A model generated the notes under the pieces. It searched no databases. It was not told the origin of the DNA and worked only from the letters and a program-made list of their open reading frames with translations. A stretch of 64,000 nt of DNA from Gaeumannomyces sp. JS-464 (lineage: Eukaryota > Ascomycota > Sordariomycetes > Magnaporthales > Magnaporthaceae): positions 1,818,399 through 1,882,398 of the forward strand of contig NGZR01000007.1 in NCBI GenBank assembly GCA_002197995.1. The letters are read 5' to 3'. Below, one piece after another: positions 1 through 50,987 of the stretch (its first letter is position 1; each line of letters opens with the position of its first letter). A program made the position numbers and the translations under genes.

Positions 1-3000
1 GCTGGGCGTCCTCCCGAACTGGTGGTCGAGCCCCTCGGACGGCCCAGCTCAACCACCGTACTTCAGAACGGACGAGCTGCAGTCGAGGCTTGCTGTTGCC
101 GGCTTTGGCGCACCCGAGGCCGTGGTTCTCGACGCCGAAGCCCCTTATCAGGTCACGGCAACCATTGTCACCAGGCCCGTAGCCGAGGCGCCTGTCAAAA
201 GGGTCACCGTCCTCGTGGAGTAGGAAGGGCCCCAGGTTCAGCGTATCCTGGGTCAGCTCGAGAAGGCCGGCTATGAGATCTTCAAGTGCGGGCTCGCCGA
301 TGAGCCCCCGGCCAGACAGGACGTACTTTCCTGCTGGACATTGACAAGCCTTTCTTCCACGACATTGATGAGGCAAGCTTCAAAGCATTCAAGCCTTATC
401 TCCTTGGGCTCCAGGAGAAGAGCGCTGGCATGCTCTGGGCGACGCGTCTCGTCGACATTGGATGCAAGGATCCCAGGTACGCACAGGTTCTCGGCTTCGC
501 CAGGACCGTTCGCACAGAGCAGCTGGCCGAGTTGGCGACTGCCAGGTCGATGATTTCGACAGCCCCGAGTCCGTCAATCGCATCCTTCAGGTTCTAGCCA
601 AGTTCCAGACACGCTTGTATGATGACGAGGAACTCAACCCGGATTTCGAGTGGGCCATTTTCAACAACCGCGTCCAGGTCGCCCGCTTCCACCCCTTTGT
701 CCTGAGCGACGAGCTCCTGATCTCGCACAAGGCGAACGACATGTCCACCCTGAATGTTGCCACGCCTGGACGCATCAACAGTCTGCACTATGCTAAGCAA
801 CAGCGCAAGAAGCTCGACGCCGATGAGGTCGAGGTCGAGGTCCATGCGGCAGGACTGAACTTTAGAGTGAGTTGACTCCCCCATTCAACAAACCTACTGG
901 CCATGCTGTCGACTAACGCATTGGTTATAGGACGTGCTCGTTGCTCTGGGGATTGTCGAGCTTCCCGTGCGCCTATTCGGCATCGAAGCCGCAGGCATCA
1001 TTACCCGCGTCGGATCGGACGTCAGCCCAGACGATCTCCAAGTGGGAGATCGCGTCGTCTGCTTTTGCAGGAAGGACGCCTTCTCAACCTACACAACCAC
1101 CTTGGCGGCCGTCTGTGTGCGGATTCCTGACAGCCTCTCATTTGAACAGGCTGGAACGATGCTGATTCCCTACTTCACTGCCATCCATTCCATGATCAAC
1201 GTTGGACGTGTTACGAAGGGCCAGGTCAGTAATTAGCCTGCACTCGCCCGCCCCAACACGCCAACACGCTTGAGGTGGCGTTAGCTAACCGTGCCATTCT
1301 ACAGACCGTTCTCATCCATAGCGCCTGCGGCGGTGTTGGCCTTGCCGCTATCCAAGTTGCCCGGATGTTGGAGGCCGAGCTGTACGTCACGGTCGGCAGC
1401 GAAGAAAAAGTCAAATACCTGATGGACAACTACAACATACCGAGGAACCAGATCTTCAACTCTCGGGACGGATCCTTCGTGGACGGTGTCATGCGCGAAA
1501 CCGGAGGCCGCGGCGTTGATTTCATTCTCAACTCGCTCTCTGGAGAACTTCTGCACGCCACCTGGAGCTGCGTCGCCGAGTTTGGAACACTGCTCGAGAT
1601 CGGAAAGAGAGACTTGATCGGCGATGGAAAGCTCGACATGAAACCCTTCCTGGCGAATCGCAACTACTGCTGCGTCGACATCGACGGTCTTTGGAAGAGG
1701 ATTCACGTCGCCAGAGCCTTGATTTTCACCATCCTGGATTTTTACGACAAGGGCCACATCTCGCCGCTCCCCATGAGCATTTTCCCCGCGTCCCTGACCA
1801 AGGACGCATTCCGATTCATGGAGAAGGGTCAACATATCGGCCGTGTCGGCGTGGTCATGAAGCAGGCTGGAGACTCCGAGCCGCTTCAGACTGTCAAGAG
1901 GCAGTTGGATGTTTCCTTCAACGGCTCCGTCTCTTACCTCATGATCGGAGGGCTTGGCGGAATCGGTCGCGCCGTGTCCACGTGGATGGCCGACCACGGG
2001 GCCCGAGAAATCGTCTACATGTCTCGCAGCGCCGGCCTCAGCAAAAAGGACGACACTTTCGTCCGAGAGCTAGAAAGCATGGGCTGCAAAGCCAAGCTCG
2101 TCGCTGGCGATACCACCAAGATCGAGGACGTCGAGAGGGCAATCGCGACGGCAACTTGCCGCTCAAGGGCATCGTCCAAATGTCCATGGTGGTCGCCAAC
2201 GAGAACTACACCAGAATGAGCCACGAGGAATGGAGCGCGTCGACGGCGCCCAAGGTCCAAGGTACCTGGAACCTGCACAACGCCTCCGTCGCCGCGGGTG
2301 TAGACCTGGACTTCTTCCTCATGTTCAGCTCCGTGTCCGGCATCGTCGGCCAGGCCGGCCAAGCCAACTACGCCAGCGGTAACACCTTCCTGGACGCCTT
2401 TGCCCAGTACCGCAACCGCCTCGGGCTCCCCGCCTCGGTCGTCGACATGGGCGCCGTCGAGGACGTTGGGTGGATCTCGGAGCATCAGGGCATGATTGGC
2501 AAGATGTCGCGCAGCGGCTTCAAGCCGGTCCTAGAGCAGGAGGTCATCGACGCCATGGCCATCTCCATGCAGGTCCACAACAAGGCCGAGAGGAACCTCG
2601 AGGGGGCCCTCGCCGCCGCCGCGGACTCCAAGAATGCGTTCAGCTTCTCCCACAAGAACACGTTTCTTGTCGGCCTCGCCATGCTCATCCCGCTGCACGA
2701 CCCGAGCAACTACGTCATCTGGAAGAAGGACCGCCGCACGGCGTCGTACCACAACAACTCCACGGCCGCCGTCACGGCGGCCTCGACCGACGTCCTCAGG
2801 TCGTACCTGAGCGGCGCCCAGGCAGACCCGTCCGTACTCAAGACGGCGCAGGCGGCGGGCCTCTTCGCGCTCGAGATCGGCAAAAAGCTGCTTGACCTGC
2901 TGCTCAAGCCCCAGGACGGTCTCAAGACCAGCATGCCCCTGGTCGATCTCGGGCTCGACTCGCTGCTGGCTCTCGAGTTGCGGGCGTGGATCAAGCAGGT

Positions 3001-3115
3001 CTTCTCGTTGGACATCCCCATGTTGGAGATGATGAGCATGGGGTCCCTGGACATTCTGGGCCAGCATGCCGCGGAGGAACTTTATAGGAAGACAACTGAG
3101 GACAAAGGAGCCTAG
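1..3115 (+). CDS. Highly reducing polyketide synthase, C-terminal part (5' end outside window)
   Basis: This is the 3' part of an iterative type I PKS that makes a reduced polyketide chain. Visible in order are the tail of a C-methyltransferase domain (LPNWW-type motif, about 2-190), a linker (about 340-800), an enoylreductase (GLNFR at the first intron; NADPH motif SACGGVGLAA near 1320), a ketoreductase (GGLGGIGRA near 1950; catalytic YASGN near 2365) and a C-terminal ACP (LGLDSLLALE near 2950, the Ser being the phosphopantetheine site). No thioesterase, reductase or condensation domain follows the ACP, as in FUM1-type synthases, so release must be in trans. Two GT-AG introns lie at about 868-930 and 1225-1304. 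Breaks seen: an in-frame TAG at 221-223, and reading-frame shifts near 328 (T run), 537 and 2149 within the ketoreductase. Whether the gene is functional is therefore open. The next gene starts 0.7 kb downstream on the same strand. Confidence 0.93.
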
Positions 3116-3832
3116 GGTTCCTTTTTGGCTGTGTTCTTTACGAGGCCTTTTGTTTCCCATCGTTTTGTTTGTGCGCTGGTTTCTACTTGCTGCTCCGATT
3201 ACTGTTATGTGCTTTTTATTCCTATATGTCACGATGTATGAAGCTACGACATCTTTGATCAAGTCCAGTCTATCCTCAATGCAATCCACCTGTTGTTTTT
3301 ACATATTCTTGCGTCACTGGTAAAAAGTCCGAGCATCCAAGCTAGCTGTTAGTTGATGTGGGCAAACTAATCATGGATATTTTATTGCTACAAGTAACTA
3401 CGTCGATTCTATCGTAGAGGCAGTTCCCGTAATGACCCAAACAGCCTCTTCTGTCTTCTTCTTGAACCCTAAAGTTCCTGAGCCAGGCCTGCTGCCCGCT
3501 CTCAGTGAGTTGATCTTGTGGTTGCCATAGGACGACCAGGACCTGCGTGTCTCGATTTGGCCCCAGCGTCGGGACCGGAACCCGCGAGCCCGCTGGCTGC
3601 GACCTGCGGACGGCCGACGGACCGATAGGACCCCGGGCCATGCCTGGGGCTGCTTCTGAGGCAGATCTAAATTCCGAGGATTTTGTCCTACGATAAGACA
3701 CTGACTGATAATGCCTAACAGATGCTACTCCAGCACATTTCACGCTTCGCCCAATCGATTACTGAAGCCTCCGAGCCTTGATCCATCCAACATCGCAATT
3801 CCGTCCACCCCTCGTTTAGACAGGTCGCAACC
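3116..3832. other. Intergenic region between PKS and dioxygenase
   Basis: This 717-bp stretch holds the AT-rich 3' flank of the PKS (3116-3320), a more GC-rich middle part and the presumed promoter of the dioxygenase gene. I see no convincing coding sequence, RNA gene or repeat in it. Confidence 0.6.
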
Positions 3833-4856
3833 ATGTGGCGAGTCCCCATCGACGTGCCCCAAACCGCCCAGGCCAACGGGCTGCGCAAGCTCGCCGAGGT
3901 GACGGTCGACACGCCGCTCGACGAGGTGTTTGCGCTGTGGCGCGAGTCCGGCGCCGTCATCATCAAGAACATGCTCACGCGGGACGAGGCGGGCCGGATC
4001 AACGCCGAGCTGGAGCCGCTCCTGGGCACGGTCCAGCGCGGCTCGCTGGTGCCGCACCGGGACGTCCAGACGTTCCACGGGCCGCGGACGCGGCGCGCGG
4101 GCGACCTCATCAACCACTCGGCCACGTTCCGCGCGCGCGTTGTCGAGGGCGGCTTCGTGCACGCCGTCTGCGCCCGCTGCTTCCGCGAGGGCGGCCACAA
4201 CGGCGACTACTGGCTCTCGACCGCCTCGACCCTCGACGCCATGGGCCCGCAGCCGGGCCAGGTGCTGCACCGCGACCTGACGTCGTACCCGCCCTACGCC
4301 CAGCTCGGCCCCGAGGGGACCGAGGCCAAGATCAGCTTCCTCTTCGCCTTCTCCGACTTCCGCGACGACAACGGCGCCACGCGCGTCATCCCAGGAAGCA
4401 ACAAGTGGGCCTTTGACCAGCGCGGCCGCATGGACCAGACAATCCCCGCCGAGATGGACATGGGCGACTGCCTGCTCATCAGCGGCAAGGTGGTGCACGC
4501 CATGGGCGAGAACCGGACGACCACCGAGAGGAAGTGCACCCAGCTGACCGTCGTCCTGAGCTTCCTCACGCCCTCCGAGGCCCACCCCCTTCATCATCAC
4601 CCTCGACACGGCCAAGAAGCTCTCGAAGCGGGCGCAGCGCTTCGTCGGCTTCAGGTCGCAGTACCCCCGGGGCTCGCCCGGGCTGTGGACCAAGGACTAC
4701 ACCGAGCTGGCGCTACATCTGGGGCTGGATGATTTCCAAGGCGCGATGCAGGCCTGGTTGGACGAGGGCGTCATGACCCAGCCCAAGCAGTGGGACATGA
4801 TCGATGATGACAAGCTGAACGGCAACAAGGCGAATGGGCAAGCAGCTGAAATCTAA
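3833..4856 (+). CDS. PhyH-family 2-oxoglutarate/Fe(II) dioxygenase (FUM3-like hydroxylase candidate)
   Basis: The protein is about 340 aa, in the phytanoyl-CoA dioxygenase family, whose members hydroxylate acyl or polyketide chains. The iron-binding HxD is seen as LHRD near residue 145 and the distal His in GKVVHAMGENR near residue 225, with the downstream Arg that would hold 2-oxoglutarate. There are no introns. The start at 3833 is the first ATG giving a full N-terminus. In fumonisin clusters a dioxygenase of this family (FUM3) hydroxylates the sphinganine-like backbone; that role here is inferred from the neighbours. A run of five C at 4585-4589 shifts the frame; the last 85 or so codons continue open in another frame to the TAA at 4854-4856, so a one-base error is likely. 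The gene is convergent with the MFS gene. Confidence 0.88.
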
Positions 4857-5020
4857 AAGTCTAGTCCCATATGATCACACCCATGAAAGACGTCAAGTCC
4901 TTCTGCCCATGAACTTTGACAAAAATTAAAAGGAAATATTTTCCCCTCAGCCTCTTTTCCCAGTCGCAGATCCTGTCTCAGTAACGAAAAGTAAGCAAAC
5001 CTTTTCACGTCGCAGCAGGT

Positions 5021-6832
5021 CTAGTTATCCTCAAAGTGCTGGTTCCCACGGTCCTTCCTCTTCAGCTCGATCTCGTCCAGGAACACCGAAGACACCAAGC
5101 CAATCCCGGTCAGCCCTGTCATAGTGTAGAAGATGACCTTGAAGGACTCAAGGTAGACCCCAAGACCCGATGCAGGGTTGAGGGGGAAACATCCAGTCCT
5201 ACCAACTTGCCGATGAAGTTGACGGCGTTGGAGGCATCCTTCAGAGGAGCCAGCGTCCCCGTCAGAGCAAGCCCAGCCTGGGAGATGGAATTTGAGAAAA
5301 CAACATTGAAGATGGGAGAGCAGATGGCAAGGCCGACAAGAGCCCCAAACATGCGGATGGTGAGGAAATTTGCCGTCGCCAGGCCTTCATCGTCGACCTG
5401 CTTGACGCTCGCTGAGCAGGAAGCATGGTGAGACGCAACAATGAAACGCCTTGTCCCCAGAGAATTGGCAGCCCGTAGAGCATCGGCGCCGAGGCCCCCA
5501 CCTCGAAGAGGGCCAGCAAGCTGGTCCCCACCGCGGTGATGACCCATGAAACCCGCAAAAGCCATACGTATCCCCCAAACAGGGGGACCATGATCATGGA
5601 GACGGCCGCGACCACCACGCTCAAAATTGTGGTTGGCAGCAGGAAGACGGCTGCCTGAATGGCAGTCTTGAGCTCGACAGCTTGGTAGAACAATGGCAGG
5701 TATTGAAGCAGGGAGATGAGGACTATGCCGTGGATGAAGCCACCCAACAAGGCCATATTCCCGGTCTTTGTCTGGAAGAGCCGATGGGGATGATTGGTGC
5801 CGCAGGCTTGGACTCATACCAAGAAAACACGCAGAGAATGGCAACTCCTAGGAGCAAGGGAACGAGGGTTTGCCAGGAGGCCCATGGGAATAATGACCCC
5901 GCCCAGCTGACCGGTATGCAGAAGATGCTGATTCCGACGACGACAAGCGGCATGCCTACCCAGTCGAGACGCTTCAGGTTGGCGACGAGGGTCGCGTCGA
6001 GCGGGACGGCGCGAAGTTTGAGAAAGAAGAAGAGCAGCACTGCCCCGGTTCCCAGCAAGGGCAGGTTGATCCAGCCGATCCATCTCCAGGTGGTGTAGGT
6101 GGAGAAGAGCGCGCCGACGAAGGGCCCCAGGATGTTGCCGACGGCGCTGGGGATGGCCATCAGTCCGAGATACTTGGAGCGCTCTTCCAGCGTGGTCATG
6201 TCGGCGAGGATCACCGACGCCAGGACGTCGATCCCTCCGCCGCCGAGCCCCTGGAGGACACGGCCGGCGATGACGGTGTTCATGTTTTGCGCCAGGGCGA
6301 ACACGATGGAGCCGACGAAGAAGAGCGCCACAGAGACGTGGAGGGGGTACTTTCGGCCGAACGCTTGGGAGAGGCTGGCCCAGACGGGCTGCATGACCAG
6401 GCCGCAAAGGCTGTAGCCAAGGTTCGCCCAGAACGACTCCAGGCTCGTGCCCTTGAGATCGCCCGAGATAGCCTGCCAATGCATGCCATGGGTTAGAATT
6501 GGGGTTTGGTCAACAGGAGAGACATTGTTCCAGTCGAACACGGATGATGATCTTGTCAAGCTCACAGGGAGGGCGATGCTCAGGCAGGTCGCGTCGAGTT
6601 GGAAGACGAAGAGGACCAGGGCGAGCCCCGCGAAGGCAAGCCAGAACGACAGGGACTTTTTTGGCGCGGGCTGGATCTTGACCTCTCCAATCTGCTCGTC
6701 GGGTCCACAGGACTCCTCGGTTGCCTTTTCTGCGTCCTTGGGCCGTGCTTGCAGCTCCAGCAAATCCCCGACAACGGCGACGGCAGTGGTCTCGGCGCTA
6801 GGGCCGCCGGTCTCGGCGTCGGAATGGCGCAT
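5021..6832 (-). CDS. MFS transporter, DHA2-like 14-TM drug/toxin exporter
   Basis: The product is about 570 aa with the usual MFS layout: a long cytosolic N-terminus (about 65 aa), then multiple hydrophobic segments. The motif A-like loop GRKYPLHVSV and the GRVLQGLGGGG motif C region are characteristic of fungal DHA2 exporters. One intron, complement(6473..6565), has a good branch site; because it is 93 nt long the frame stays open even unspliced. The start at 6832 was chosen because the frame upstream reads as promoter-like sequence. Frame breaks occur near 5184, 5410 and 5775, each explained by one missing base. The gene is divergent from the SUR2-like gene. By position it is the likely exporter or self-protection gene of the cluster; substrate unknown. 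Confidence 0.86.
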
Positions 6833-7507
6833 GGTGAAGAAGCCGGGAGATGGAGTCCACTCGGGCCGCCTGGAGTGCCCTTGATTGAACTTGGAGACGC
6901 GAAGCGACGTCGAGGGTGCCAAGGTGGGCGCAGATTCTCGAGTTTGTCGTCCATTGAGCGTTGGTCTTCGCCGTGGGACCCGCAGCACCCTGGATTTTTT
7001 CGGGGTGGGAGGGAAGTTTCCTCCCTCGTGCCTGCTGTCTGGTGGTGTCGGCTCCGCAGAAAACCCCCAGCCGGCTGCAGCTGGTGCCAATTCAATTCCT
7101 GTCTGGTTACACGGGACGCACCTTCGGCTTCCATGGAGCACAGCGGCGCGATTGAGGGAAGCAAAATCAGCGTCTGGTGGCAGTTGGTTCACTCTGGGAG
7201 TCTGGCTGTGCACGGGGCAACGCGGGAGGCAGTCGGTGGTTGCGCATCGCTGACATCGCATCAATTTCGTTTGTCTGTCCAACCACGCGTGCTGCAGGGT
7301 GCATGCAGCCAATACATCCCATTCATGCTGCTCGCAGGAAAGGGATTGAAATCAATTTGGGGACCTTCAAGTTTCGAATCAATAAAAATCAACATCCAAA
7401 ATCGAGAATGAAACCCCGCCCCTATCCAGCAGGAACCGAAAGAAAAAAAAAAAAAAAAAAAAACGGCACCGTCATTCCTGCGCAATCCATCCTCTCTTGC
7501 CTCCAGC
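6833..7507. promoter_or_regulatory. Shared divergent promoter, MFS / SUR2-like hydroxylase
   Basis: This 675-bp intergenic stretch separates two divergently transcribed cluster genes, suggesting co-regulation. It contains a 21-base A tract at 7443-7463, only 45 bp before the hydroxylase ATG. I see no clear Zn2Cys6 inverted CGG pair that I would defend. Confidence 0.5.
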
Positions 7508-8602
7508 ATGGACATTCTCCCGAGTTTGACAACCTCCCAATGGGCAGCCCTCTCCCCCGTCACGAGCTACATCCTGGGGACGCTTTTCTTCACAACCCTC
7601 GAGACCTTCAACATCTGGGAACAGCACCGCGTCTATCCCAGCGACGAAGAACTGAAACGGAACAAGGTATCGAGGGCGGACGTCATCACGCACGCCGTCG
7701 CCTACCACAGCGTCACCACTGCCCTGTCCCTCGTCTTTGTCCACGTCCAACCTCCCCTCCAGGAATGCTCAGACTGCTTTGGCTCGTACGCCTACTGGCA
7801 GTCGTCCGCAGCGGAGCTCCTCGGCATTGCCCACGATAGTAATTCGATACAGCTGACTGCCCTATCCTGGCTCGCGAGGCTCACGTATCTTGGCGTGAGA
7901 CAATTCATTGCCTTCTTCATCTTCGACACCTGGTTATACTGGACACACTTGTTTGCCCACCGCAATAGGTTGGTTCAGTAAGTAATACCTGCCGGGGTGC
8001 ACTTGCAATTCGTCTTGGTGACTAACCTCCACGATTTGCAGAGCACTTCCACTCAAAGCACCACGAGCTCTACAACTCCTTCTCTTTTGGTTCAGCCTAC
8101 AACCACCCCGTCGAGAGTTTCTGCTTCGACGTCGTTGCCTCGCAGCTCGCCTCTGGAATCCCACGCCTCACAGACATCGAGCAGGCCGTGTTCCTATCGT
8201 TGGCCACGGTCCGGTCCTGCGAAAATCATTGTGCCTACAAGCTGCCGTACAGTCCCTTTATTCTCTTTGGAGGTCTGATTGGATATACGCCGGAGTGGCA
8301 CAACATCCACCATGCGAACTTTGGATTCCAGGCAAGTAAACCCATTCAGTCTCACCTGGGCGGCAGCCATCTGATAACCTGACTTTTGCTTTATTGATTA
8401 GTTCAACTTTGCGACTTACTTCCCATGGTGGGATATCTGGATGGGCACGGCGTATACTGGGCCCCGCAAGGTTTACGATCGTTCCAAGGTTGCTGTCGAT
8501 GACTCCAAGGCGGCAGCCTCCATCAATGGCGCTTCAGACGGCGCTATTACTACGGGCCTCGTTCTTGATAACGAGTTATCCGAGTTTAGGTCGAGAAAAT
8601 AG
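7508..8602 (+). CDS. SUR2-like sphingoid-base/fatty-acid hydroxylase (di-iron, membrane)
   Basis: The protein is about 320 aa of the fatty-acid hydroxylase superfamily, closest in layout to sphinganine C4-hydroxylase (SUR2). His boxes are seen as HLFAH (exon 1), HSKHH followed by YNHPVE, and WHNIHHANFG (exon 2); several hydrophobic N-terminal segments fit an ER membrane enzyme. Exons are about 7508-7977, 8042-8331 and 8402-8602. The second intron (8332-8401) is a GC-AG intron (CAG|GCAAGT). The first junction is unclear: the consensus donor GTAAGT with the acceptor at 8041 leaves the frame off by one, while a weaker donor at 7973 with an acceptor at 8043 is in frame. Next to an oxoamine synthase and a ketosphinganine reductase, hydroxylation of a sphingoid-like chain is the best guess. 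Confidence 0.87.
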
Positions 8603-8893
8603 GCTTGAGTATGACAAAGCGGCTGTCACAGGGAACATGGCCGAGCTGCGAAATTATATGTAGTTAGTATTTTAGTTCGGAGCTTTATCCCAGTGGGGCG
8701 CCCATCACTTAGGGTCTTGGCGAGGCTTAATCCGTTAGCCTGGCCAAATAGGTTTCTTGGAAATTCATTCCAGACCAAGGCTCACATAAAAAGCCCTAGA
8801 ATGAATAATCACCGAGATAGACAACTTAAATAACAAGGCCTCAAAATACTACTTGCCTGCCTACCTGTACCTGCCCATCTCGCCATGCCGTCT

Positions 8894-10462
8894 CTAAAGT
8901 CCATTTGCGTCTTCCTTGGACAAAGCAACAAGCTGCTGTTCTATCGCTGGCCAAGTCCCCTTACGCAAATTATACGACAACCAGTAATTCCCACCAGCAT
9001 CCTTGCCGATCACCACGCCGGTGTTTCGAGTCGCATAGTGTCTCGTGCCGCTCCCCTGGATGCAAGACGGCATTCCCACCTGATTCTTTCGTTCTTTGAG
9101 GCTCAATCCCTCGCCAACCGCTGCAGGCGAGAAGTCCACCCTGAACAGCTTGGCCTTCTCCCAGTTCGAGACCATGAACATGAACATACCAGGGTCTCCG
9201 AAAATGGCCGGATGCCCCGCGTCCTCGAGACAGCGCTTGCGGATGGCGTCCAGCGCTTGGAGCTGCTCCGGCCTCCGCTGCTGGACCAGGGCCCTGCGGA
9301 CCTCGGACGCCGTGAAGCCGAGGGGCCTCTCGAGGACGTCCCGGACCTTGAGGAAGGTGATAGCCCCGAAGACGGCGTTGGTGACGAGCGCGGACGCCGC
9401 GGACGGGACGAGCCCGAGCTCAGCCAGCAGCGACCGGCAGCAGCACGTGTTGCGCATGTTGAGCGTGCGGTCCGGAGAGGGCCTCTCGGCCTGGAGGACG
9501 ACGCGCGTCCACCAGGCGAAGACGACGTTCCCTCGCCTCACGAAGGGCGCCGCCGCCTCCCCTTCGCCCCTCTCCCTGGCCTGCTGCTGCGTCGTTGCGA
9601 TCTCCTTCAGGGCCTCCTCACGCATCCGTCGGAGGTGTTTCGCTGGCAGGAAAATGATCCGCTCCTCCTCCCTGCGCGGCCACAGCAGCTCGATCGACAG
9701 GTAGTACCGCGCAGCGAACAAGATCCAGTTCCAACCCATGAGGAGCCTGTCCGCAAACATATATTTCCCCGGCGGCGATTTGGCGTTCGCCTTTCTGTCG
9801 CTGAGCGCTCCTAGCGGGTCGTCGGAGAAGCCCAGGAAAGGCTTCACTTGATCCTCGTCCCCGCGCAGAACCCGGTCCGACGTTCAGATCCCATCATGTC
9901 CCGTCACTGTGAGGAAAAGAAATCGTGACCAGCGTCGCGTCCCGGAGAAGCGGATGACATGAAGTCCAGCTGGGGCTGTCGGAGCACAGCCAGTCGTCGA
10001 GGCGCTCGGGGAACCCCGGGGTGCGGATGAAGGCCTTGAAGCCGGGCGACTGCGCCAACGGGACGCGGAAGGCGACAGGCACGCCGGCCGCGTCGAGGTC
10101 GTGGGGCCGGGCCAGGCGCGACGCCTGCGGGTGCTCGTCGACGGCGACGTCGAACGCGGCCGTGGAGAATGCGAACCCGGGCCGATCGTCGTCGAAGCGC
10201 TGGGGACGTGGTACTCCAGCGCCCCGTTGCTGCTATTCCTGCGGATGCGGGCGCCCAGCTTCCGCCAGTCGCCCAGCTCTAGGAGCCGGGAAAGGGCGGC
10301 GCGGAGCTTATCGCCGTCGAGGACATCGTCGAAGCGGAATGTGAAGTCGAAGCAAAGACCGTTCGTGTGCTTGGAGTCGTCGTAGTAGTGGAAGGGAATG
10401 ATTGTGTCTGTCGGCACGGTCGGTGGACTGGCAAATCGCCTCCTGAGCCCGAAAAAATCCAT
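8894..10462 (-). CDS. BAHD-like acyltransferase (fungal transferase family)
   Basis: The C-terminal 317 aa are uninterrupted (8894-9847), and the N-terminal part from the ATG at 10462 shows the start typical of fungal BAHD-type transferases, which move acyl groups from CoA to alcohols or amines. The expected HxxxD active-site region falls at about 9890-9925, where the sequence reads SFPHS followed by frame breaks and a stop, so the catalytic motif cannot be read cleanly. Another frame shift lies near 10200. No DFGWG-type motif is obvious to me. In this context it could acylate a hydroxyl or the amine of the sphingoid-like product; sphingofungin C is an O-acetylated example of such decoration. 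The protein could also be a decayed copy. Confidence 0.72.
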
Positions 10463-10987
10463 AATGGGGCTTCGATCTTCTGGAGCACAGCTGTGCGGGC
10501 TGGCTTGGCGATAGGAACCGCTCGAACCCACCCTTGGCCATGGCCCCTGGTTTCCCTTAGTGTTCCGTGTCTCGGCAGATCGGCTTCGCCGTATCTCCCT
10601 CATGCTGGGGTCAGCCCGCGGAAATCAGCCGAGTCCTGCAGTCGGGCGCCGGAACCCGGGAGACCGCCAATCGGCGCCTGCCTGGATGCAGCCCCGCTCC
10701 GAGCGCGTTGAGGTGCCTTCTGGAGGCACAGCAAAGTCGCCCAGCGGCGCAACGAGTCTAGAGTCCAATGTCACCCCTGAGCGTTGCCGTGCCGCTGACA
10801 CTACGACACTCAATATCACCTGTGTCGTGAGTCTGCTGTGCGCGTGCATTATGCATGGGTGAATGCTGCCGAGCATCTACAGAGTACCAGAAGTACCGAT
10901 ACATGTAATTTCACAGGATTCCCAAGCCGAAAGCGCAACGCGGTAGCAGTCATTCATTATTCAGGAAGTAGGATGTACCGCAGTCAC
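10463..10987. other. Intergenic region upstream of the acyltransferase
   Basis: This 525-bp stretch is the promoter side of the acyltransferase and the 3' flank of the SDR gene. No gene is supported. Upstream in-frame codons of the acyltransferase extend to about 10603, but lack family resemblance. Confidence 0.5.
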
Positions 10988-12227
10988 TTATTCGCCTAAC
11001 TTCCGCAGCTCCTCGCCGTCCTTCCTCGCAAGCCCCTCCCACTTTGATCGAAGATACGGCATGACAATCCAGCTCATCAAGGGCTGGAGCAGCGTGTCGA
11101 CCACGCCCCAGCCCCTCTTGGGCGAGGCCCCCATCATGTTCGCAAACAGGGCGTGCTGCTCGAGCGAGTACGTGACGATGAAGTCGCCCCGGTCGACCGC
11201 CCTGATGATCATGCCCGCCACCTTCTCCGACGACGGGAACTTGCCGACCAGCTTCTCGATCGGCTGGTGCAGCCCCTGGATCGTCTTGTTCAGCTGCACC
11301 TTTGTCGCCTGCTCCTTCATGAACCCCGGCGAGACGAAATCGCCCGGGAAGGCGCAGTGGATCGAGTAGTGTGACGCCGCCGTGTCGTGGCGGAGGACCT
11401 CGAGGCGCAGTGTGTCTGCCAGGGCACGCAGGGCGGCTTTGGAAGCTGCGAGAAAAGAAAAAAAGAAAACAAAAAGGTCAATCCTTTTGATCACCTGACA
11501 GCAAAATCCCACAAAACCGAGACTCACTGGTGTAGGCGATCGAGCCCGGCAGTCCCAGAAATGCGGCGGCGCTGTTGTGAAGACGATCTGGCGGTGCCTT
11601 TGACGGGGCGGCTTGGGGACCGATGCGTCCTCGGCGAGCCAGATGTCCATCAGCGTCTTTGCGGCGTTGGCGGCGGAGAAGTAGTTGTTGCGCATACAAT
11701 CCTCGAGGTCCTTGGCGCTCAGGTCGACGAAGAAGCCGTTTTGGTTGTAGTTGCCTCCTGCCACGCAGTAAACGATGTCCGGGACCCGGGGCTGCGACTT
11801 GAATGCCTCGTCGACCTAGGGAAAGGGATTTAGCGGTCCGGGACGTTGGAGGCAGACACGCGAAACTGGGCCTGGAAATGCTTTTTACCTTCTGGGCATA
11901 TCCCATATCGACCGCCACGATGTTGACATCTTGGGTTTTGTCAAAACAGAAGGGAGTGATTTCCTCCTTCGCCTCCTGCAGCGGGTCGTGGCTTCGGGAG
12001 AAGAGGGTGATGTGTGCACCTGGCTGGTATTAGAACGGTATGCTTGACCGGGATGGGATGGCATCAACCCACGTACCTCGAGATGCCAGTTCTTTGGCAA
12101 GGGCTCTTCCCAATCCTCCAGCGCCTCCAGTGATGAAGGCGGTCTTCTCGAAACGTCAGCGCTTGCCCCACGTCTTCTAGAGAGGCAGAAACTCGTCACC
12201 TGCCTTGCCGATCAAGTCTTGCTTCAT
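10988..12227 (-). CDS. 3-ketodihydrosphingosine reductase-like SDR (TSC10/FUM13 type)
   Basis: The protein is about 330 aa, a short-chain dehydrogenase that would reduce a 3-keto sphingoid intermediate with NADPH. Seen are the nucleotide motif TGGAGGLGRALA, an NNY motif (CMRNNYFSAANAA), the catalytic pair in YTTSKAAL formed across an intron, and FPGDFVSPGF, as in 3-ketosphinganine reductases. A hydrophobic C-terminal stretch (LLQPLMSWIVMPYL) fits the membrane-associated tail of KDSR proteins. Exons on the minus strand are about 10988-11445, 11528-11815, 11889-12019 and 12077-12150. The 5' exon is uncertain: the ATG at 12227 needs a frame correction near 12150. FUM13 in fumonisin biosynthesis has the same role. 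Divergent from the oxoamine synthase. Confidence 0.88.
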
Positions 12228-12786
12228 TTTTGGTGGCTGGACGATGGATGGATGCCCTGAGTTTGCTACCAAAGGGCAAAAAGAACACTCGGGACAGGCT
12301 GCAGTTTGTCTATTCCTTTGTTTTCTCGTCTGAGACGGTCAGATGCTATGGATGATGATATGGATGGATCCTTGGGGCGGACCGCGGCCTCCTCGGCGGA
12401 ACGGTCTGTCCTATCGCGGGCCACCCCCATCCCGGTCAGCGGCGCTGATGTCGGGTCCGCCCGTGCCGGCAGCATCGGGTTCCGGCCCCGGATCCAGACC
12501 AAGGTGCGACGCGACACACTGCACGGAGGCATTCACGCCGACATGATTACTTGCAAACACGTATTCCGGAACACGGCTTAGGTTCGTAGGCAGGGACTGG
12601 CATTTCATTGTAATACCAGGTCCAGATGCTGCAAGCTCGACTTTTTCTCTTAAACTGCAACCCACCATCGTCGCGACGTAATCCGTTCCATCCCAGGCCA
12701 CCACACGACGAGCGCGATTGACTCATTCTATCAACGAAACACACTCGGAGCTTCTCTCGTCAGCACACCCCTTTGCAAATCTCAAC
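12228..12786. promoter_or_regulatory. Shared divergent promoter, SDR / oxoamine synthase
   Basis: This 559-bp region separates the two genes that would carry out consecutive steps (condensation, then 3-keto reduction), so shared control is plausible. No open frame in it has family resemblance, and I could not pick out a defensible transcription-factor site. Confidence 0.5.
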
Positions 12787-14338
12787 ATGTCTGAGGCAGC
12801 AATCTCTCTGCTATCCGGCTGGATCAAGAGCCAAAAGCCCCAAGCCCCCCAGATGAAGGACGCACCGACTTTCTTCCGCAACCTCGAGGAGGCCCTCGAC
12901 CTCCGCCGCGCGGACCACTCCATGTTCACCCGCACCAAGTCCGCCTGGAAGCTCGGCCACGCGTACGACTTCTGCTCCAACGACATGCTCTCCCTCGGCA
13001 AGACGGGCGCGATCCGCCGCGCCTTCCTCGGCGAGCTGGCCCGCAACCCGGACTTCATGATGTACTCGGGCGGCTCGCGCCTCATGGACGGAAACTACGG
13101 CTACATCGAAGAGGTCGAGGCCGAGATCGCGGCCTTCCACGGCGCCGAGACGGCGCTCATCGTCGGCAGCGGCTTCGAGGCCAACATGGCCATCTACGCC
13201 GCCATCCCGAGGCCTGGCGACGCCATCGTGTACGACGAGCTGGTCCACGCGAGCACCCACGACGGCATGAGCACCTCCCTGGCCCAGTGCCGCGTGCAGT
13301 TCCGGCACAACGACGTCGACTCGCTCGAGGCCATCGCGGGCATCATGGACACGCAGCCGCAGGTCGCCGACGGCTCGCGCTCGCTCTTGATCTCGGTCGA
13401 GAGCGTGTACAGCATGGACGGCGACGTCTGCCCGCTGCTGGAGATGATGGACGTGGCCAAGGAGATGTGCCCCAAGGGGAATGCCGTCTTCATCGTCGAC
13501 GAGGCCCATGCCACCGGCATTCTGGGGCCCAAGGGGGCGGGCCTGGTGTCTCAGTTGGGTGTTGAGAAGCAGGTGGCAGTGCGGTTGCATACCTGCGGAA
13601 AGGCGCTGGCGTCAACTGGAGGTAAGAGAATATGACTCTCGCCTACGCCATGCAATGAGGCAAAATTACTGATCCCCCAGTTTGGGTGTTAATTAGCGGA
13701 CATCCTTGGGAACGACTCGGTCCGCAACACCATTATGAACTTCGCCCGCTCCGTCATCTACACCACCGCTCCCTCGTTCCCGACCGTTGCTGGCATCAGG
13801 GCAGCATACAAGCTCATGGCCGACGGCGAGACACAAAAAGTAAGCAACCGCCTCCATCTCTCATCTTATTCTCCCATAAACGACACAAAATACTGACTCC
13901 CGCAACCACCCGGATAGTACCAAGACAACATCCAACACCTGGTCAAGCACTTCTTCAAGACCATCCAGGCCAGCCCTCACTGGGCCAAGGCCAACGAGGC
14001 GGGCATCCTCAGCATCCCCGTGATCGAGGACTGGGAGGAGCGCGAGTTCAACGCCCACATCGTGCCGCTGAGTCGCGCCAGCGCTACGTCTGGTGGCTGG
14101 TCTTCCAGCTGCAGCTGGCCTTCCCCGTCGACTACCCCACCGTGCCGCGGGCCAGAGCCGCATCTGCCTCATGTTCCACGCGGCCAACACGTCGGAGCAG
14201 GTCGAGCACCTGGCCAAGACCATCTGCGACTGGGCCGCGGAGATGATGGAGATCGAGGCGAGTCCCGGCGGGGGCAAGAACAAGATCCCGAAGGCTGCGC
14301 AGCAGGTCTATGCGTTGATGGCTGCGCATAGTAGTTGA
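12787..14338 (+). CDS. Alpha-oxoamine synthase (PLP, AONS/SPT-like; FUM8-type releasing enzyme candidate)
   Basis: This class II PLP-dependent acyltransferase of about 466 aa condenses an acyl thioester with an amino acid, losing CO2. Visible signatures are NYGYIEEVEAEIAAFHG, VDEAHATGILGPKG (the PLP-ring Asp and His) and HTCGKALASTGG, whose Lys is the Schiff-base residue. Introns are 13622-13696 and 13840-13917. Unlike FUM8, which is a two-domain protein of over 800 aa, this is a single oxoamine-synthase domain, like the stand-alone enzyme reported for sphingofungin-type clusters. Frame breaks occur near 14068 and 14150, the latter in a G run; the open frames resume in order and reach a TGA at 14336-14338. 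It is the most diagnostic gene of the cluster: a PKS lacking a release domain beside it suggests release as a 3-keto-2-amino product. Confidence 0.9.
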
Positions 14339-14803: not shown

Positions 14804-14811
14804 TTTAATAA

Positions 14812-14842
14812 GAGGCTCTTCCCGGCCACGCACCCTTTTTGC
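14812..14842 (+). repeat. Left terminal inverted repeat of the hAT-like element
   Basis: This 31-bp sequence is the exact reverse complement of 15608-15638. It runs from GAGGCTCTTC to CCTTTTTGC. Confidence 0.92.
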
Positions 14843-14877
14843 ATCTACACGCACCCTTTTTGCATCTACACGCACCC
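14827..14877 (+). repeat. Subterminal 21-bp tandem repeat
   Basis: Two exact 21-bp copies (14827-14847 and 14848-14868) plus a partial third start inside the left inverted repeat. Subterminal repeats of this kind often act as transposase binding sites in hAT elements; that function is inferred here. Confidence 0.85.
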
Positions 14878-14991
14878 TGCCCCACTTTTGGCCCGTGCAA
14901 CGCCTGTGCGTTCCGGTTTCGCAGCCTACGTAATTTTGCCTGCAAATTGAACTTGGTGCCATTTTTGATCCATTTTTCAACAATTACCCCT

Positions 14992-15347
14992 ATGAACGAA
15001 GTGATCACGATCTCGAGCGACGACGAGGCCGGGCCGGACGAGGCTGGGCCGGCCTCGAGGGACCGCGCCCTTTGGTAACGAGGCGCCGGCGGCAGGGCCT
15101 CGCACCCGCGCCCGCACGGGTATACGGGCCAGCGCAAGGCGTGATTACTCTCAACACGAACTGGGCCTCCCTGGAGGCACGTGACGAGGCTGACGAGGCG
15201 GAAGGTCTGGTGCTTACCCTCGGCACTCCCCTACCCTCAACGCCGGCCACTTTCCCCTCAACGCCGGCCGCCCTGCCTTTAAGGCTGGCCGGGAGGGCCT
15301 CCACGTTCTTTCCAGCGCCTGCGCCGGCCTTTGACGAGTTTTTTTGA
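14992..15347 (+). pseudogene. Short internal reading frame of the hAT-like element
   Basis: From the ATG at 14992 a short acidic peptide starts with EVITISSDDEAG, a good match to a SUMO-interacting motif (hydrophobic core followed by Ser/acidic residues). That frame stops at 15078. A second open frame overlaps it and runs Pro/Ala-rich to 15347, so the two may be one frameshifted coding remnant of about 118 aa. It could be the start of an element-encoded protein whose rest has been deleted. No enzyme motif is present. Confidence 0.4.
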
Positions 15348-15607
15348 TCCCTTTGCGAGTCCCTAGGCCCCTTTGTAGCCCTAGATAGACGGCCTTAACG
15401 CCGTGCCCCTGCACTTTTCCTATGTAATTTGGCTGCTCAACACCGCGTTTTTGATCGTTTTTTAATAAATTGCTCGTGGCGATAACTTCTATTTGCTTCC
15501 CTCCTGTTGATTGAGCCCCTGCCTGCATTGAAGCCTATGTTCGTTTGTGTGGGCGCCCCATAGAAAGTTGCATGGCGGCCGATATCGGTGCGGGTGTGCG
15601 TGTGGGA

Positions 15608-15638
15608 GCAAAAAGGGTGCGTGGCCGGGAAGAGCCTC
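15608..15638 (-). repeat. Right terminal inverted repeat of the hAT-like element
   Basis: This 31-bp sequence is the exact reverse complement of 14812-14842; similarity weakens further inwards. It is followed directly by the TTTAATAA duplication. Confidence 0.92.
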
Positions 15639-15646
15639 TTTAATAA

Positions 15647-24247: not shown

Positions 24248-24678
24248 TGTGTTTCTCTTTCTGCTCGTTTTCTTTTCCCCTCCCTTTCTTCTTCTCCCTC
24301 TTCCTTTTCTTGTCCCTTTGGTAATATTATGTAAATGTTTCAGCAGCGGAGACGAACATATACATCTATGCAAGCGCGGGTAATACGGCAATTAAAATTT
24401 AGACGTTAGACGGCTCGCGATATGCGAGGGACCCATTCGAGTGCAAAAATCCCTGACGGTGGTCGATTCTCGGGGCAGAGACTGAGACAGATTATAAGAT
24501 CTGGCATCGGCATCAGCATGGCACTGTGCCAAAGGTCGGAACCCTATTGGTAATTTCAAGTAGTCTGTGAATATGTTGCATCGTGACTCTCCGCAAACGA
24601 GGAAATATGAATCGAGTTAGACTCCAGGAATTTCATGCAGAACGATATAGGCCTGATAGCTGAGAAACCACCCTGGGT
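24248..24678. other. Convergent 3' flanks
   Basis: These 431 bp lie between two converging genes, with CT-rich sequence at 24253-24320. No gene or repeat is seen. Confidence 0.5.
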
Positions 24679-26556
24679 TTAGATATAGGCCAGGGTATTG
24701 TCCTCCCGAATCTTGCCCAGCACCCCGAGAGACGCTTCGCCGCCGGCCACACAGGGTCCCCGAACAATAATCTAGATAGTACAGGTGGTTAGTGTCTTGG
24801 TCTGCAGTGGGGAAAGCAAGGAGCATAAGATAAAAGAATGTCAACGGGAAAAATCGTACTTCGCCTTCAATCTTCTCATCGGTCGTCTTATGCTCGCCCT
24901 TATCACGCAGCAGAATCTCGGTCGTGGTGAGCGGGGGCCCGAAATGCGACGCGCGCGACGCGGCTGACGGATCCTCGACGACGCGGTAGTCATAGAATCC
25001 CGTCTGCGCAACGGCGCCGGCGGCCTTGGGCGCTGTGAGCGCGTAAACCACGCGCGCGCCTGTGAAGACGCGGAGGTCCGACAGCACGGCCGAGGACAGC
25101 GGCGGCGTGCCCGCGCCCACGCGCTCGGCCACGAAGACGAGTCGGAGCTTGCCGGGGGTGCGACCCAGCGCGGGACGGAGGCCGTCGTTGAGCGAGGAGA
25201 GCAGCGAGGCGACGGGCATGACGCCCGACTGGGTGAGGGACCGGGACTGCATGCCGTGCACGCTGCGTGCGAGGGCCGACTTGGCGACCGAGGCAGAGGT
25301 TTGTGCGTGGGTGCGGAGAAGCGCGGCGGGCGTCGCAACCAGAACGGTCGGTGAGATGCCGCGTGTGGCCAGGGTGAGGTCCTCGGCACGGCCGGCGGCC
25401 GAGTTGAAAGCGACAGAGCTGTTGCTGTAGAGGGCGGCGAGCGTCAGGATCAGGGTGTGGGTGTTTGCGAGCGAGTCGGCGGGCAGGAACAGATCCGAAG
25501 GGCCAAGACGCTGCGACGTGGGGACTGCCAGCATTTGGCCCGCGATCGCAGCGACCAGGTTGGCGCTCGTGAAGCGGACCATCTCCTCCATTTCCCCAGG
25601 CTTCGACTGCCAGAAAATGGTGACATCGCGGGCCTCCTTCTGTCCTTCGACGGCAGGCAAGTCCCGACCGGCGTCAACAGGCTGCTCGGCCACAACATCG
25701 TGCCATGTCGAGACGTTGACGGCGCCACCAGTGCCCTTGGGTACTTCGTTCCAGTCCAGGTGCCGGTTGCCCTCCTCAACAACCCAGACGATGTTGCGCA
25801 GGGAGGGGTAGTTCTTGACTACGGCGTCGAAGGGGAAGGAGCCGGGAAGTGCCACAACCGTGTCGGCAGCGGAGCGGCGCAGCATGGACAGGACGGCTTC
25901 TTCGGTCTCGTCGAAGGGAAGGATAATGGCCGTCAGGTTGTGGAAGGCGCAGGCGAACAGGGTGGCGATCAGCTCGACCGAGTTGGGCAGGTAGACGGCG
26001 ACCCGGTTTCCGCCCTGGTCAAGAATGTGGGCTCCGATCAGGTTGATCTGGCGGGTGACATCGTCTGCGGCGGGGTCCCGGTGTCAGTGAAGGCCATAGG
26101 CTGCAGCATGCAGAAACAGTAAGGCGTACCCAGATTGTGCTCGATGACGTTCTCAGAGCCGTAGACGGTGAGCAGGCGACCCTTGCCCTTAGCCTGTCCC
26201 TCAGTCTCGGGCGTGCCGGCGACCGCCTGCCTCCAGACGTCACGCAGATCACCGTCGCGGCCTCTGGACCACTTGGAGGCGCCCGGATCCTTGACGTTGA
26301 GGCCGGTGTTGAGGGGCATGCCGTGGGGCGAGGCGTGGCAGCGGTAGACGGCGGACTCGCCCTCCTGACGCACGGGAGCCGCCTGGGCCTGTCGGGCGAG
26401 GAGCATGGGGTGAGTGTCGGGGTCGGCGCGGGTGAACAGCGAGTAGGTCAGGATGCCGAGGAGGAGGGTGACAAGGGCGGTCGTGTACGAGTTCCACTGA
26501 CCGACCATGCCCGTCAGGCCCTCGTCGATGTGCCACATGATACTATCGAGACCCAT
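24679..26556 (-). CDS. AMP-binding (acyl-CoA synthetase-like) membrane protein with degenerate core motif
   Basis: The protein is 574 aa, with exons complement(26130..26556), (24860..26064) and (24679..24771). An N-terminal membrane segment (TTALVTLLLGILTYSLF) precedes an adenylate-forming enzyme fold (GNRVAVYLPNSVELIATLF; HNLTAIILPFDETEEA). The Ser/Thr/Gly-rich P-loop expected of these enzymes (TSGTTGxPK) is absent; the matching place reads FWQSKPGEMEEMVRFT. The protein ends about where the C-terminal subdomain of ordinary ligases would begin (REDNTLAYI). It may therefore be a pseudo-enzyme or lipid-binding derivative at the ER. It is intact over all three exons, arguing for selection. No cluster link is apparent. 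Confidence 0.8.
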
Positions 26557-27586: not shown

Positions 27587-28574
27587 ATGTCGTCTACCGC
27601 TGTCGCCTCCAGGCCGGCGGCCGTCAAGACACCGGTCGGCACGCCCCAGAAGGCTGCTGCAAGCAGCGCCGCCGTCACCGAGAGCCCTGGCAACTGGAAG
27701 CATCCGCGCTTGACCGAGATCACTAGGAGACAGAACGCCACCAGGTTCTCGGAGAAGAACCTCAGGATAATCCTGTACAACGCTCTCGCCTTTGTCATGG
27801 TGGTCGTCGTCCGGTCCAATGCCGCGGTCCAGAAGCACACGCAAACGTTCGTTGGCTTATCTCTTGAGAGCCCGCGTGCTACCAAGCATGATCTTCAAAC
27901 AAGCCGAAAAAGCTGACATGATCTATCTGACAAACAGATATAGCCCGTCAATAAGAGGATACATCTGGTGGGCCTTTCTCGGGCTGCACCTTATCCCGCT
28001 GGTAAACATCGGCCTGGCCCTCCTGCCGCTGATCCGCGCCAAGGACGAAATATCCGATATCCCCCTCACGGCCGCCCAGCGCCAGCTCCTGGGCCTCCCA
28101 CCCAGCTCCGCCCCCGCCACACCTGGCTCCGCGTTCAGCACGCCGCCCCGTTACGCGCGTACGCCGTCCTTCTCGGGGTCAGTAGGGAGTGCCAAGAGCT
28201 TCTCGACGTCTCCCCTGTTAGGCAAGGGCGCCGGCAGCCCCGGGCCGCTGCTGGGATCCCCCGCCAATCTCAAGGCCAACGGCAGCGGCAATGGCTCTCC
28301 GTTCTCGCCGTTCTCGCCCGGCGGCGCCGTCGGCGGTAGCCCGCTGTTCCAGAAGGCCGTTAAGGGCGGTCAGCGGAAGGCGTCTTTTGGCGGCTCGCCG
28401 GCACCCCTGCTGAGCGAGAAGTCGCTTTCGGCGGCTCCCACCCTCGTCCCCGACTCTTCGGCCACTTCGACGGGCACTCCGAGTCCTTCTGGCAAGCGCA
28501 CTTCGGTGGCTCTGAACAGCAAATGGCTGTACGAGAAGGGTCGGAGGAGCTCGGGTTCTGGGTGGGCCCATTAG
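27587..28574 (+). CDS. POM34: Nucleoporin POM34 (NPCC family membrane nucleoporin)
   Basis: The protein is 298 aa, with exons 27587-27846 and 27938-28574. The family anchors nuclear pores in the pore membrane with POM152. Two hydrophobic segments are seen ([15 protein letters not shown] and [19 protein letters not shown]), followed by the family motif [19 protein letters not shown] long Ser/Pro/Gly-rich tail leads to the conserved C-terminal box [15 protein letters not shown]. The donor is a weak GTTCGT; it is the only site that joins the two membrane segments in frame, and a CTGAC branch site precedes the acceptor. Intact, no frame breaks. Confidence 0.88.
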
Positions 28575-50169: not shown

Positions 50170-50987
50170 CTTGACGGCGATGCCTCGGGGCCTGGGGTGA
50201 CTACACGGCTGGGATTTTGGAGGTTGTCGCCAGAAGACTCTTGCCGGCGCAATGTTGAGGCTTCAAAAGTCGGCGTGGGGGTTTGTGGTGCGGTTGCCGA
50301 TGCGACAATAGCGGGCAACCTTGTGGTGGGGAATCCCAGTGCAGGGAGGGGAATCGCCAGGGCGACGGTGACAGCGACAGGGGCCAGCCAGACGCGTCGG
50401 TTCGCGTGGCACCCCGAATTGCGCGTCGAGTTAAAGTGCTTACATTGGATTCCGCACCCATATGTCCAGGGATCCTCGAGGTATCGCTATCATCACGTGT
50501 CGCCTCCCCATCGGGAGCGAGCTCCTTTGTTCGGCTCAACCTCGGGGCTGCCGCAGCCCCCAGCGCAGTAGCAAGGTCGACATTAGCTGGCCTTGAGTGA
50601 TGGCGTCTTTGGCGCGGCGCTTGGCAAGGAAGTAAGACCCGGCCCAGCACTGCGCATCCTAATACAATCGATACCCAGCTACGGAGAACTGGTAAAAAAC
50701 GTTTCCGGCACGGCCAGCTCACATCTTGCCTCTTGCTGCTACACGACGTGCAACACTCGCACACGGTCCCCAGCCCGCGCACCGAAAACCAAACACTCTG
50801 CCGACCCCAAGGCTGTCTCCAACTGCGCTGGATATGATCTCAAGATAAAAGGACAGACGCCGAAGCCCGCCCTCCACCGGAACCGATCCGGCCACTACCC
50901 ACCCGGATCAGCCGATCCCGACGGCCTCCCCCCGCCGTCCCGTCATGCCCTGACCTCCGTCGCCTGCTTGCGCGGAGGCTGTTAAAC
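50170..50987. promoter_or_regulatory. Bidirectional MCM5/VPS54 promoter
   Basis: This 818-bp region between divergent starts contains one MluI cell-cycle box (50392-50397) and an E2F-like TTTGGCGC at 50608-50615. Both suit G1/S control of MCM5. Confidence 0.7.
50392..50397. promoter_or_regulatory. MCB element (ACGCGT)
   Basis: The palindrome ACGCGT lies 223 bp upstream of the MCM5 ATG. In yeasts MBF binds this site to drive replication genes at G1/S; the role here is inferred. Confidence 0.6.

What the first reader, a model, noticed from the sequence alone, without database searches (positions are those of the whole stretch)
1..14338. Candidate new sphinganine-analogue (sphingofungin/fumonisin-like) gene cluster
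The sequence shows a release-domain-less HR-PKS, a stand-alone alpha-oxoamine synthase, a KDSR-like SDR, a SUR2-like hydroxylase, a PhyH dioxygenase, a BAHD-like acyltransferase and an MFS exporter, all within 14.3 kb. Established fumonisin (FUM1/8/13/3) and sphingofungin logic uses the PKS, oxoamine synthase and ketoreductase in this way. The combination with both a SUR2-type hydroxylase and an acyltransferase is not one I can match to a named cluster, so the product may be a new 4-hydroxylated or acylated sphingoid-base mimic. Such compounds often inhibit ceramide synthase or serine palmitoyltransferase.
Basis: partly seen in the sequence, partly recalled or inferred. Interest (0 to 1): 0.92.

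Follow-up and report, generated by a model that had tools for sequence, protein, structure and literature searches.

The report
Sphingofungin-type cluster with SUR2-like hydroxylase
This fungal gene cluster is of the sphingofungin type, so it is predicted to make a sphingolipid-mimicking compound; it carries a SUR2-like hydroxylase gene and no P450 gene was found in it, whereas the characterised Aspergillus cluster has a P450, so the product would likely differ, although the genes read as broken in this assembly and may not all work.

Summary
The seven gene types are there, but the PKS starts 4.6 kb left of the window and a Zn2Cys6 regulator lies beyond it, so the block spans about 23 kb. It is not a wholly unmatched combination. 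The oxoamine synthase matches PDB "Aminoacyl transferase sphA" (E 2e-121), and the "BAHD" enzyme groups with proteins named sphE (A. fumigatus relative 60% identical). PKS, SDR, PhyH and MFS fit the same sphingofungin/SAM1 set. Two things differ from the published A. fumigatus cluster: no P450 (SphH) was found, and a SUR2-like FA_hydroxylase gene sits beside sphE; that pair bears consecutive tags in Claviceps sorghi and lies on contigs of equal length in Discula. The same contig carries a second SAM1-type cluster (AOS 80% identical) with the opposite set: P450, but no sphE or SUR2-like match. Cluster genes carry at least 20 frame breaks in 15 kb. The only MCM5 gene, 33 kb away, carries 2 in 2.2 kb, so assembly error is the likeliest cause; real decay is not excluded (pooled essential genes 13 in 25.6 kb, second cluster 0 in 10 kb). 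Verdict: new variant of a known kind; chemistry untested.

The parts
1..3115 (+). 3' part of a highly reducing PKS (MT end, ER, KR, ACP; ends after the ACP, no release domain). The gene starts outside the window at L012:5367, 4.6 kb left of base 1 (KS, AT, DH, MT there).
   Evidence: Pfam on pieces: PF00109, PF02801, PF16197, PF00698, PF21089, PF14765, PF08242, PF08240, PF13602, PF08659, PF00550; broken frames
3833..4856 (+). PhyH-family Fe(II)/2-oxoglutarate dioxygenase, 56% identical to the PhyH of the second cluster
   Evidence: PF05721 1.7e-27; paralogue L069:217-1251; PDB matches to PrhA/AusE; stop read
5027..6832 (-). MFS transporter (SphD-like position)
   Evidence: PF07690 2.4e-27; paralogue in second cluster; N-terminal limit approximate
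7508..8602 (+). SUR2-like FA_hydroxylase, three exons, eight histidines of the three His boxes readable
   Evidence: PF04116; 6 homologues, best 84% identical over the searched part; exon map; boxes read
8903..10462 (-). SphE-type O-acyltransferase; the region of the HxxxD motif is altered in this sequence
   Evidence: two hits named acetyltransferase sphE, tree, tblastn, translation
10991..12227 (-). short-chain dehydrogenase, SphF/KDSR-like 3-ketoreductase (predicted)
   Evidence: PF00106 0.00025; 56-61% identical pieces in the SDR of the second cluster; start read
12787..14338 (+). alpha-oxoamine synthase, SphA-type
   Evidence: PF00155; PDB sphA 9pep E 2.2e-121; 93% to P0001; tree

Best explanation
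The block is a sphingofungin-type (SAM1-like) biosynthetic gene cluster with a SUR2-like FA_hydroxylase gene and no detected P450 gene, and it would likely make an acetylated, hydroxylated sphingoid-base mimic. Predicted steps: the PKS builds the acyl chain on its ACP; the SphA-type oxoamine synthase releases it by decarboxylative condensation with an amino acid or aminomalonate; the SDR reduces the 3-ketone; the PhyH dioxygenase would add the C-4 hydroxyl (the SphC role); the SUR2-like di-iron enzyme would add one further hydroxyl in the ER membrane, in the place that the P450 SphH has in Aspergillus; the SphE-type enzyme would acetylate a hydroxyl; the MFS protein would export the product. 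The expected action is inhibition of serine palmitoyltransferase. Shown: gene identities, the SUR2-like/sphE pairing, the lack of a P450 match, the second cluster. Inferred: every catalytic step, the site of SUR2-like action, and that the genes are intact in the organism.
For: AOS exon 1 matches PDB sphA over 275 residues, E 2.2e-121. The acyltransferase falls in a 19-row group (93/96) with two proteins named sphE. The published A. fumigatus set is SphA, SphB, SphC, SphD, SphE, SphF, SphH (passages); SAM1-like clusters hold PKS, AT, SDR and a dioxygenase, with or without a P450. The SUR2-like and sphE proteins of Claviceps sorghi bear tags E4U53_001271 and E4U53_001270, both listed with an 8,529-base contig; those of Discula are both listed with a 4,418,486-base contig. 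AOS and sphE hits share contig lengths in five further cases. Four members (window, C. sorghi and two unnamed sources) sit together in both trees. The SUR2-like gene is only 38% identical to the best other match in the genome, so it is not a recent copy of it. Eight His of the three boxes are readable.
Against: At least 20 frame breaks, at least four in-frame stops, a four-residue loss in a conserved AOS stretch, and an altered HxxxD region in the acyltransferase. The paralogous cluster has no break in about 10 kb of four genes. That SphC is a PhyH protein was inferred, not read; if PhyH already makes the C-4 hydroxyl, the SUR2-like enzyme's usual position is taken. Only 6 SUR2-like relatives were found, so the pairing rests on three genera, and is read from tags and contig lengths, not from the contigs.
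Confidence: 0.58

Rival explanations
1. The cluster is a decaying relic: its genes were inactivated and the second SAM1-type cluster on the same contig does the work.
For: Break rate 20/15.0 kb against 0/10.4 kb in four genes of the second cluster (p 3e-5), 2/11.8 kb in HSP70 genes (p 0.0008) and 13/25.6 kb in pooled essential genes (p 0.006) (an earlier count of 19 is). A four-residue in-frame loss in the AOS and an altered HxxxD region in the acyltransferase are not typical one-base errors.
Against: The only MCM5 gene in the genome, 33 kb away in the window, has 2 such breaks in 2.16 kb, a like rate (p 1.0, small sample); CCT genes have 9 in about 11.6 kb (p 0.19). The readable AOS exon is still 93% identical to its nearest relative, and the catalytic residues that I looked for (motifs recalled) are readable.
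Confidence: 0.33
2. The SUR2-like enzyme protects the producer, by supplying 4-hydroxylated sphingoid bases to its own sphingolipid pathway, and does not modify the product.
For: SphA and SphF of A. fumigatus were reported to double as self-protection enzymes (passages); SUR2 is a sphingolipid enzyme by family (PF04116).
Against: The gene is far from the best other match in the genome (38%) and travels with sphE, a tailoring gene.
Confidence: 0.15
3. The SUR2-like and sphE genes belong to a separate two-gene unit that happens to lie here.
For: They are the two genes of the block for which no counterpart was found in the second cluster.
Against: sphE is part of the published sphingofungin cluster, and both genes sit between MFS and SDR inside the block.
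Confidence: 0.05

Closest known systems
Sphingofungin (sph) cluster of Aspergillus fumigatus (PMC10936153, passages read)
   Same: SphA-type oxoamine synthase, HR-PKS, SDR, SphE acetyltransferase, MFS, a cluster regulator, and an oxygenase in the SphC role (inferred)
   Different: No P450 (SphH) match found; SUR2-like FA_hydroxylase added; AOS in a different clade, 68% identical to an Aspergillus relative
SAM1-like clusters, Kim et al. 2020 (PMC7376913; outline, sections 5, 7, 8, 9, 12 and passages read)
   Same: PKS, AT, SDR and dioxygenase together; the Metarhizium cluster also lacks the P450
   Different: The word hydroxylase does not occur in the text, and the Fig. 3 legend lists no hydroxylase or acyltransferase code for SAM1-SAM5; supplementary files not read
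Second SAM1-type cluster in the same genome (C32, about 258-281 kb; its PKS end not read)
   Same: PKS, SDR, AOS (80% in exon 1), MFS, PhyH, fungal regulator
   Different: Has a P450; no sphE and no SUR2-like match
Fumonisin (FUM) cluster
   Same: PKS, oxoamine synthase and ketoreductase logic; a Fum3 dioxygenase
   Different: AOS here is a stand-alone protein of about 470 residues; Fum8 has its residue 83 equivalent at position 580; no tricarballylate genes among the ORFs scanned

Membership tests
Sphingofungin (sph) cluster | SphA-type oxoamine synthase | tested here: met
   PDB sphA 9pep E 2.2e-121, 9dos 2.5e-123; distinct clade from Aspergillus
Sphingofungin (sph) cluster | Highly reducing PKS without release domain | tested here: met
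Sphingofungin (sph) cluster | SphE acetyltransferase | tested here: met
   activity untested, HxxxD region altered in this sequence
Sphingofungin (sph) cluster | SphF 3-ketoreductase | tested here: inconclusive
   SDR present (weak) with a paralogue in the second cluster; not compared with SphF itself
Sphingofungin (sph) cluster | SphC C-4 hydroxylase | tested here: inconclusive
   PhyH present; that SphC is PhyH is inferred
Sphingofungin (sph) cluster | SphH P450 | tested here: not met
   no tblastn match of the second cluster's P450 in 104 kb
Sphingofungin (sph) cluster | Product is a sphingofungin | not testable with these tools
   needs chemistry
SAM1-like cluster | PKS, AT and SDR within a few genes, plus dioxygenase | tested here: met
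   criterion
SAM1-like cluster | Serine at the AT position matching ALAS residue 83 | tested here: met
   SGGSR in the window AOS; the column assignment is recalled, the rule is; the same serine stands in an Aspergillus SphA relative, so it does not settle the amino acid used
SAM1-like cluster | PKS in reducing clade III | not tested
   no PKS tree built
Fumonisin cluster | Long Fum8-type oxoamine synthase | tested here: not met
   AOS is about 470 residues, like P0001; Fum8 length inferred
SUR2 sphinganine C4-hydroxylase | FA_hydroxylase domain with eight-His motif | tested here: met
   motif recalled
SUR2 sphinganine C4-hydroxylase | Hydroxylates sphinganine at C-4 | not testable with these tools
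   structure model of a homologue was too poor to use (pLDDT 40)

The most novel reading that the evidence does not exclude
A sphingolipid-pathway enzyme type (SUR2) has been recruited into the making of an anti-sphingolipid compound, replacing the P450 of the sphingofungin pathway, in a lineage seen in at least three genera; and one fungus keeps two SAM1-type clusters whose tailoring genes are complementary (A: sphE and SUR2-like; B: P450), so that their products or intermediates may be shared.
Probability: 0.35. Interest if true: 0.62.

Novelty: new variant of a known kind. Interest (0 to 1): 0.42.

Why it matters
Sphingofungin-type compounds inhibit serine palmitoyltransferase. A cluster that seems to swap the P450 for a SUR2-type di-iron enzyme points to congeners with another hydroxylation pattern, and asks whether an enzyme of sphingolipid metabolism was turned against sphingolipid metabolism. 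It also warns that frame breaks in this assembly must not be read as pseudogenes without a control.

Tried and rejected
Fumonisin membership: rejected on AOS size. Clear pseudogene verdict: not drawn, after controls on CCT, HSP70 and MCM5; the local control is small (2 breaks). Against the assembly-error reading: HSP70 has only 2 in about 11.8 kb (7 genes; one weak place left out), an apparently whole GHMP kinase frame lies 20 kb left of the window, and the four genes counted in the second cluster have none. Break counts and matched lengths were taken by hand from the tables; for CCT I used 8 of 10 places and left out two partial ones. Two of the cluster's 20 breaks could hide an intron boundary; the SDR start seems to hold two more that I did not count. 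On rechecking I found one PKS break that I had missed (19 became 20), and moved the odds of the relic reading from 0.30 to 0.33 and of mine from 0.60 to 0.58.

A home-made frame-path model was discarded: it bridged breaks with false introns. The structure prediction of the SUR2-like homologue P0121 gave pLDDT 40 from six sequences and was not searched. A PDB search with the SUR2-like profile found nothing at E 0.01. NCBIfam added nothing specific. Of the eight paper searches I saw listings only; passages were read in PMC10936153, PMC11051388, PMC9603476, PMC7711896 and one in PMC12821873. The original sphingofungin paper (ACS Chem. Biol. 2022) was not listed by the searches and was not read, nor were any supplementary files. 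No PKS tree was built; the acyltransferase tree has two long outer rows that may attract each other.
Full report
The window lies in a 53 Mb fungal genome of 34 contigs, at C32:1818399-1882398. I read 40 kb to its left. The PKS starts at L012:5367 and runs to window 3115. Pfam on stop-free pieces gives KS, AT, DH, MT, ER, KR and ACP in order, with nothing after the ACP. Left of it, on the minus strand, is a Zn2Cys6 regulator: its finger is readable and its body aligns to the regulator of a second cluster. To the right follow PhyH, MFS, SUR2-like, acyltransferase, SDR and oxoamine synthase (parts list).

Identity. The oxoamine synthase exon 1 matches the PDB chain named Aminoacyl transferase sphA at E 2.2e-121. 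Its nearest protein is 93% identical. In a tree of 38 rows (36 of the 120 listed hits, plus the window copy and its paralogue) it falls in a 10-row clade, 100/99 support, with Chaetothyriales, Claviceps, Teratosphaeria and two unnamed proteins, apart from the Aspergillus/Paecilomyces and the Fusarium/Metarhizium groups. The acyltransferase has 35 hits; two are named acetyltransferase sphE, and an A. fumigatus protein is 60% identical. In a tree of 21 rows (20 of the 35 hits plus the window) it lies in the sphE group with the two distant rows outside (93/96). Other matches to SphE in the genome are 28-38% identical.

What is unusual. The published A. fumigatus pathway uses SphB, SphA, SphF, SphH (P450), SphC (C-4 hydroxyl) and SphE (passages). 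Here no P450 was matched, and a SUR2-like gene stands next to sphE. A search with its exons 2 and 3 gave 6 proteins of 169 candidates. In Claviceps sorghi the SUR2-like and sphE proteins bear consecutive tags and the same 8,529-base contig length; in Discula both are listed with a 4.4 Mb contig. Context was read from tags and contig lengths only, since fungal contigs could not be fetched here. The best other match to it in this genome is 38% identical over 118 residues.

A second cluster. On the same contig, at about 258-281 kb, lie a PKS, an SDR, an AOS (80% identical in exon 1), a P450, an MFS, a PhyH (56%) and a regulator. No SUR2-like or sphE match was found in the 37 kb read there. So the genome holds two SAM1-type clusters with different tailoring genes. 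Whether the two cooperate is speculation.

Are the genes intact? Against related proteins, cluster genes show at least 20 frame changes without clear room for an intron in 15.0 kb (PKS 9, AOS 2, acyltransferase 2, PhyH 2, MFS 3, SDR 1, SUR2-like 1), and at least four in-frame stops (three PKS, one acyltransferase). The control matters: from the search tables I count 9 in 5 of 8 CCT genes (about 11.6 kb), 2 in 7 HSP70 genes (about 11.8 kb), and 2 in 2.16 kb of MCM5. MCM5 lies at window 47.8-50.2 kb and is the only copy (next matches 36-61% identical). An essential single-copy gene is not expected to be broken, so the assembly has one-base errors, also near the cluster. By rate, cluster against MCM5 p 1.0, CCT 0.19, HSP70 0.0008, pooled (13 in 25.6 kb) 0.006, and four genes of the second cluster (0 in 10.4 kb) 3e-5. 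So error explains part; extra decay is open. The four-residue AOS loss and the altered HxxxD stretch count for decay.

Mechanism. PKS chain, SphA-type release with an amino acid or aminomalonate, ketone reduction, hydroxylation by PhyH and by the SUR2-like enzyme, acetylation, export. All steps are inferred from family and from the published pathway. The site of the SUR2-like hydroxylation is the weakest step: its family works at C-4 (recalled), which SphC already serves in Aspergillus. I prefer the reading that it stands in for the ER-bound P450 SphH, with the exact carbon open. Residue-83 reasoning gives serine here, as in SAM1, and does not fix the amino acid.

Verdict. A sphingofungin-type cluster of a new make-up, in a known kind of system.

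Noticed in passing
window 14810-15640: Terminal-inverted-repeat element (45-base arms, 93% complementary) just right of the oxoamine synthase; 39 other long matches over the genome (40 of 180 candidates scored), 82-97% identical.
   Followed up: partly
G000 C32 about 258-281 kb (L071, L014, L068, L069): Second SAM1-type cluster with a P450 and without sphE or SUR2-like matches.
   Followed up: yes
window 47753-50262 minus strand: MCM5, single copy, with two frame changes without room for an intron: an assembly-error marker.
   Followed up: yes
window 51144-54702, 61921-63270, 27771-28571: Vps54-like gene, HGTP_anticodon2 domain (GCN2-like, recalled), nuclear pore component domain: ordinary genes right of the cluster.
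   Followed up: no
window 24620-26083 minus strand: Partial AMP-binding domain, not placed in any pathway.
   Followed up: no
window 12787-13632: Oxoamine synthase 93% identical to a Chaetothyriales record while the acyltransferase is nearest to Gaeumannomyces: horizontal transfer or a mislabelled record.
   Followed up: no
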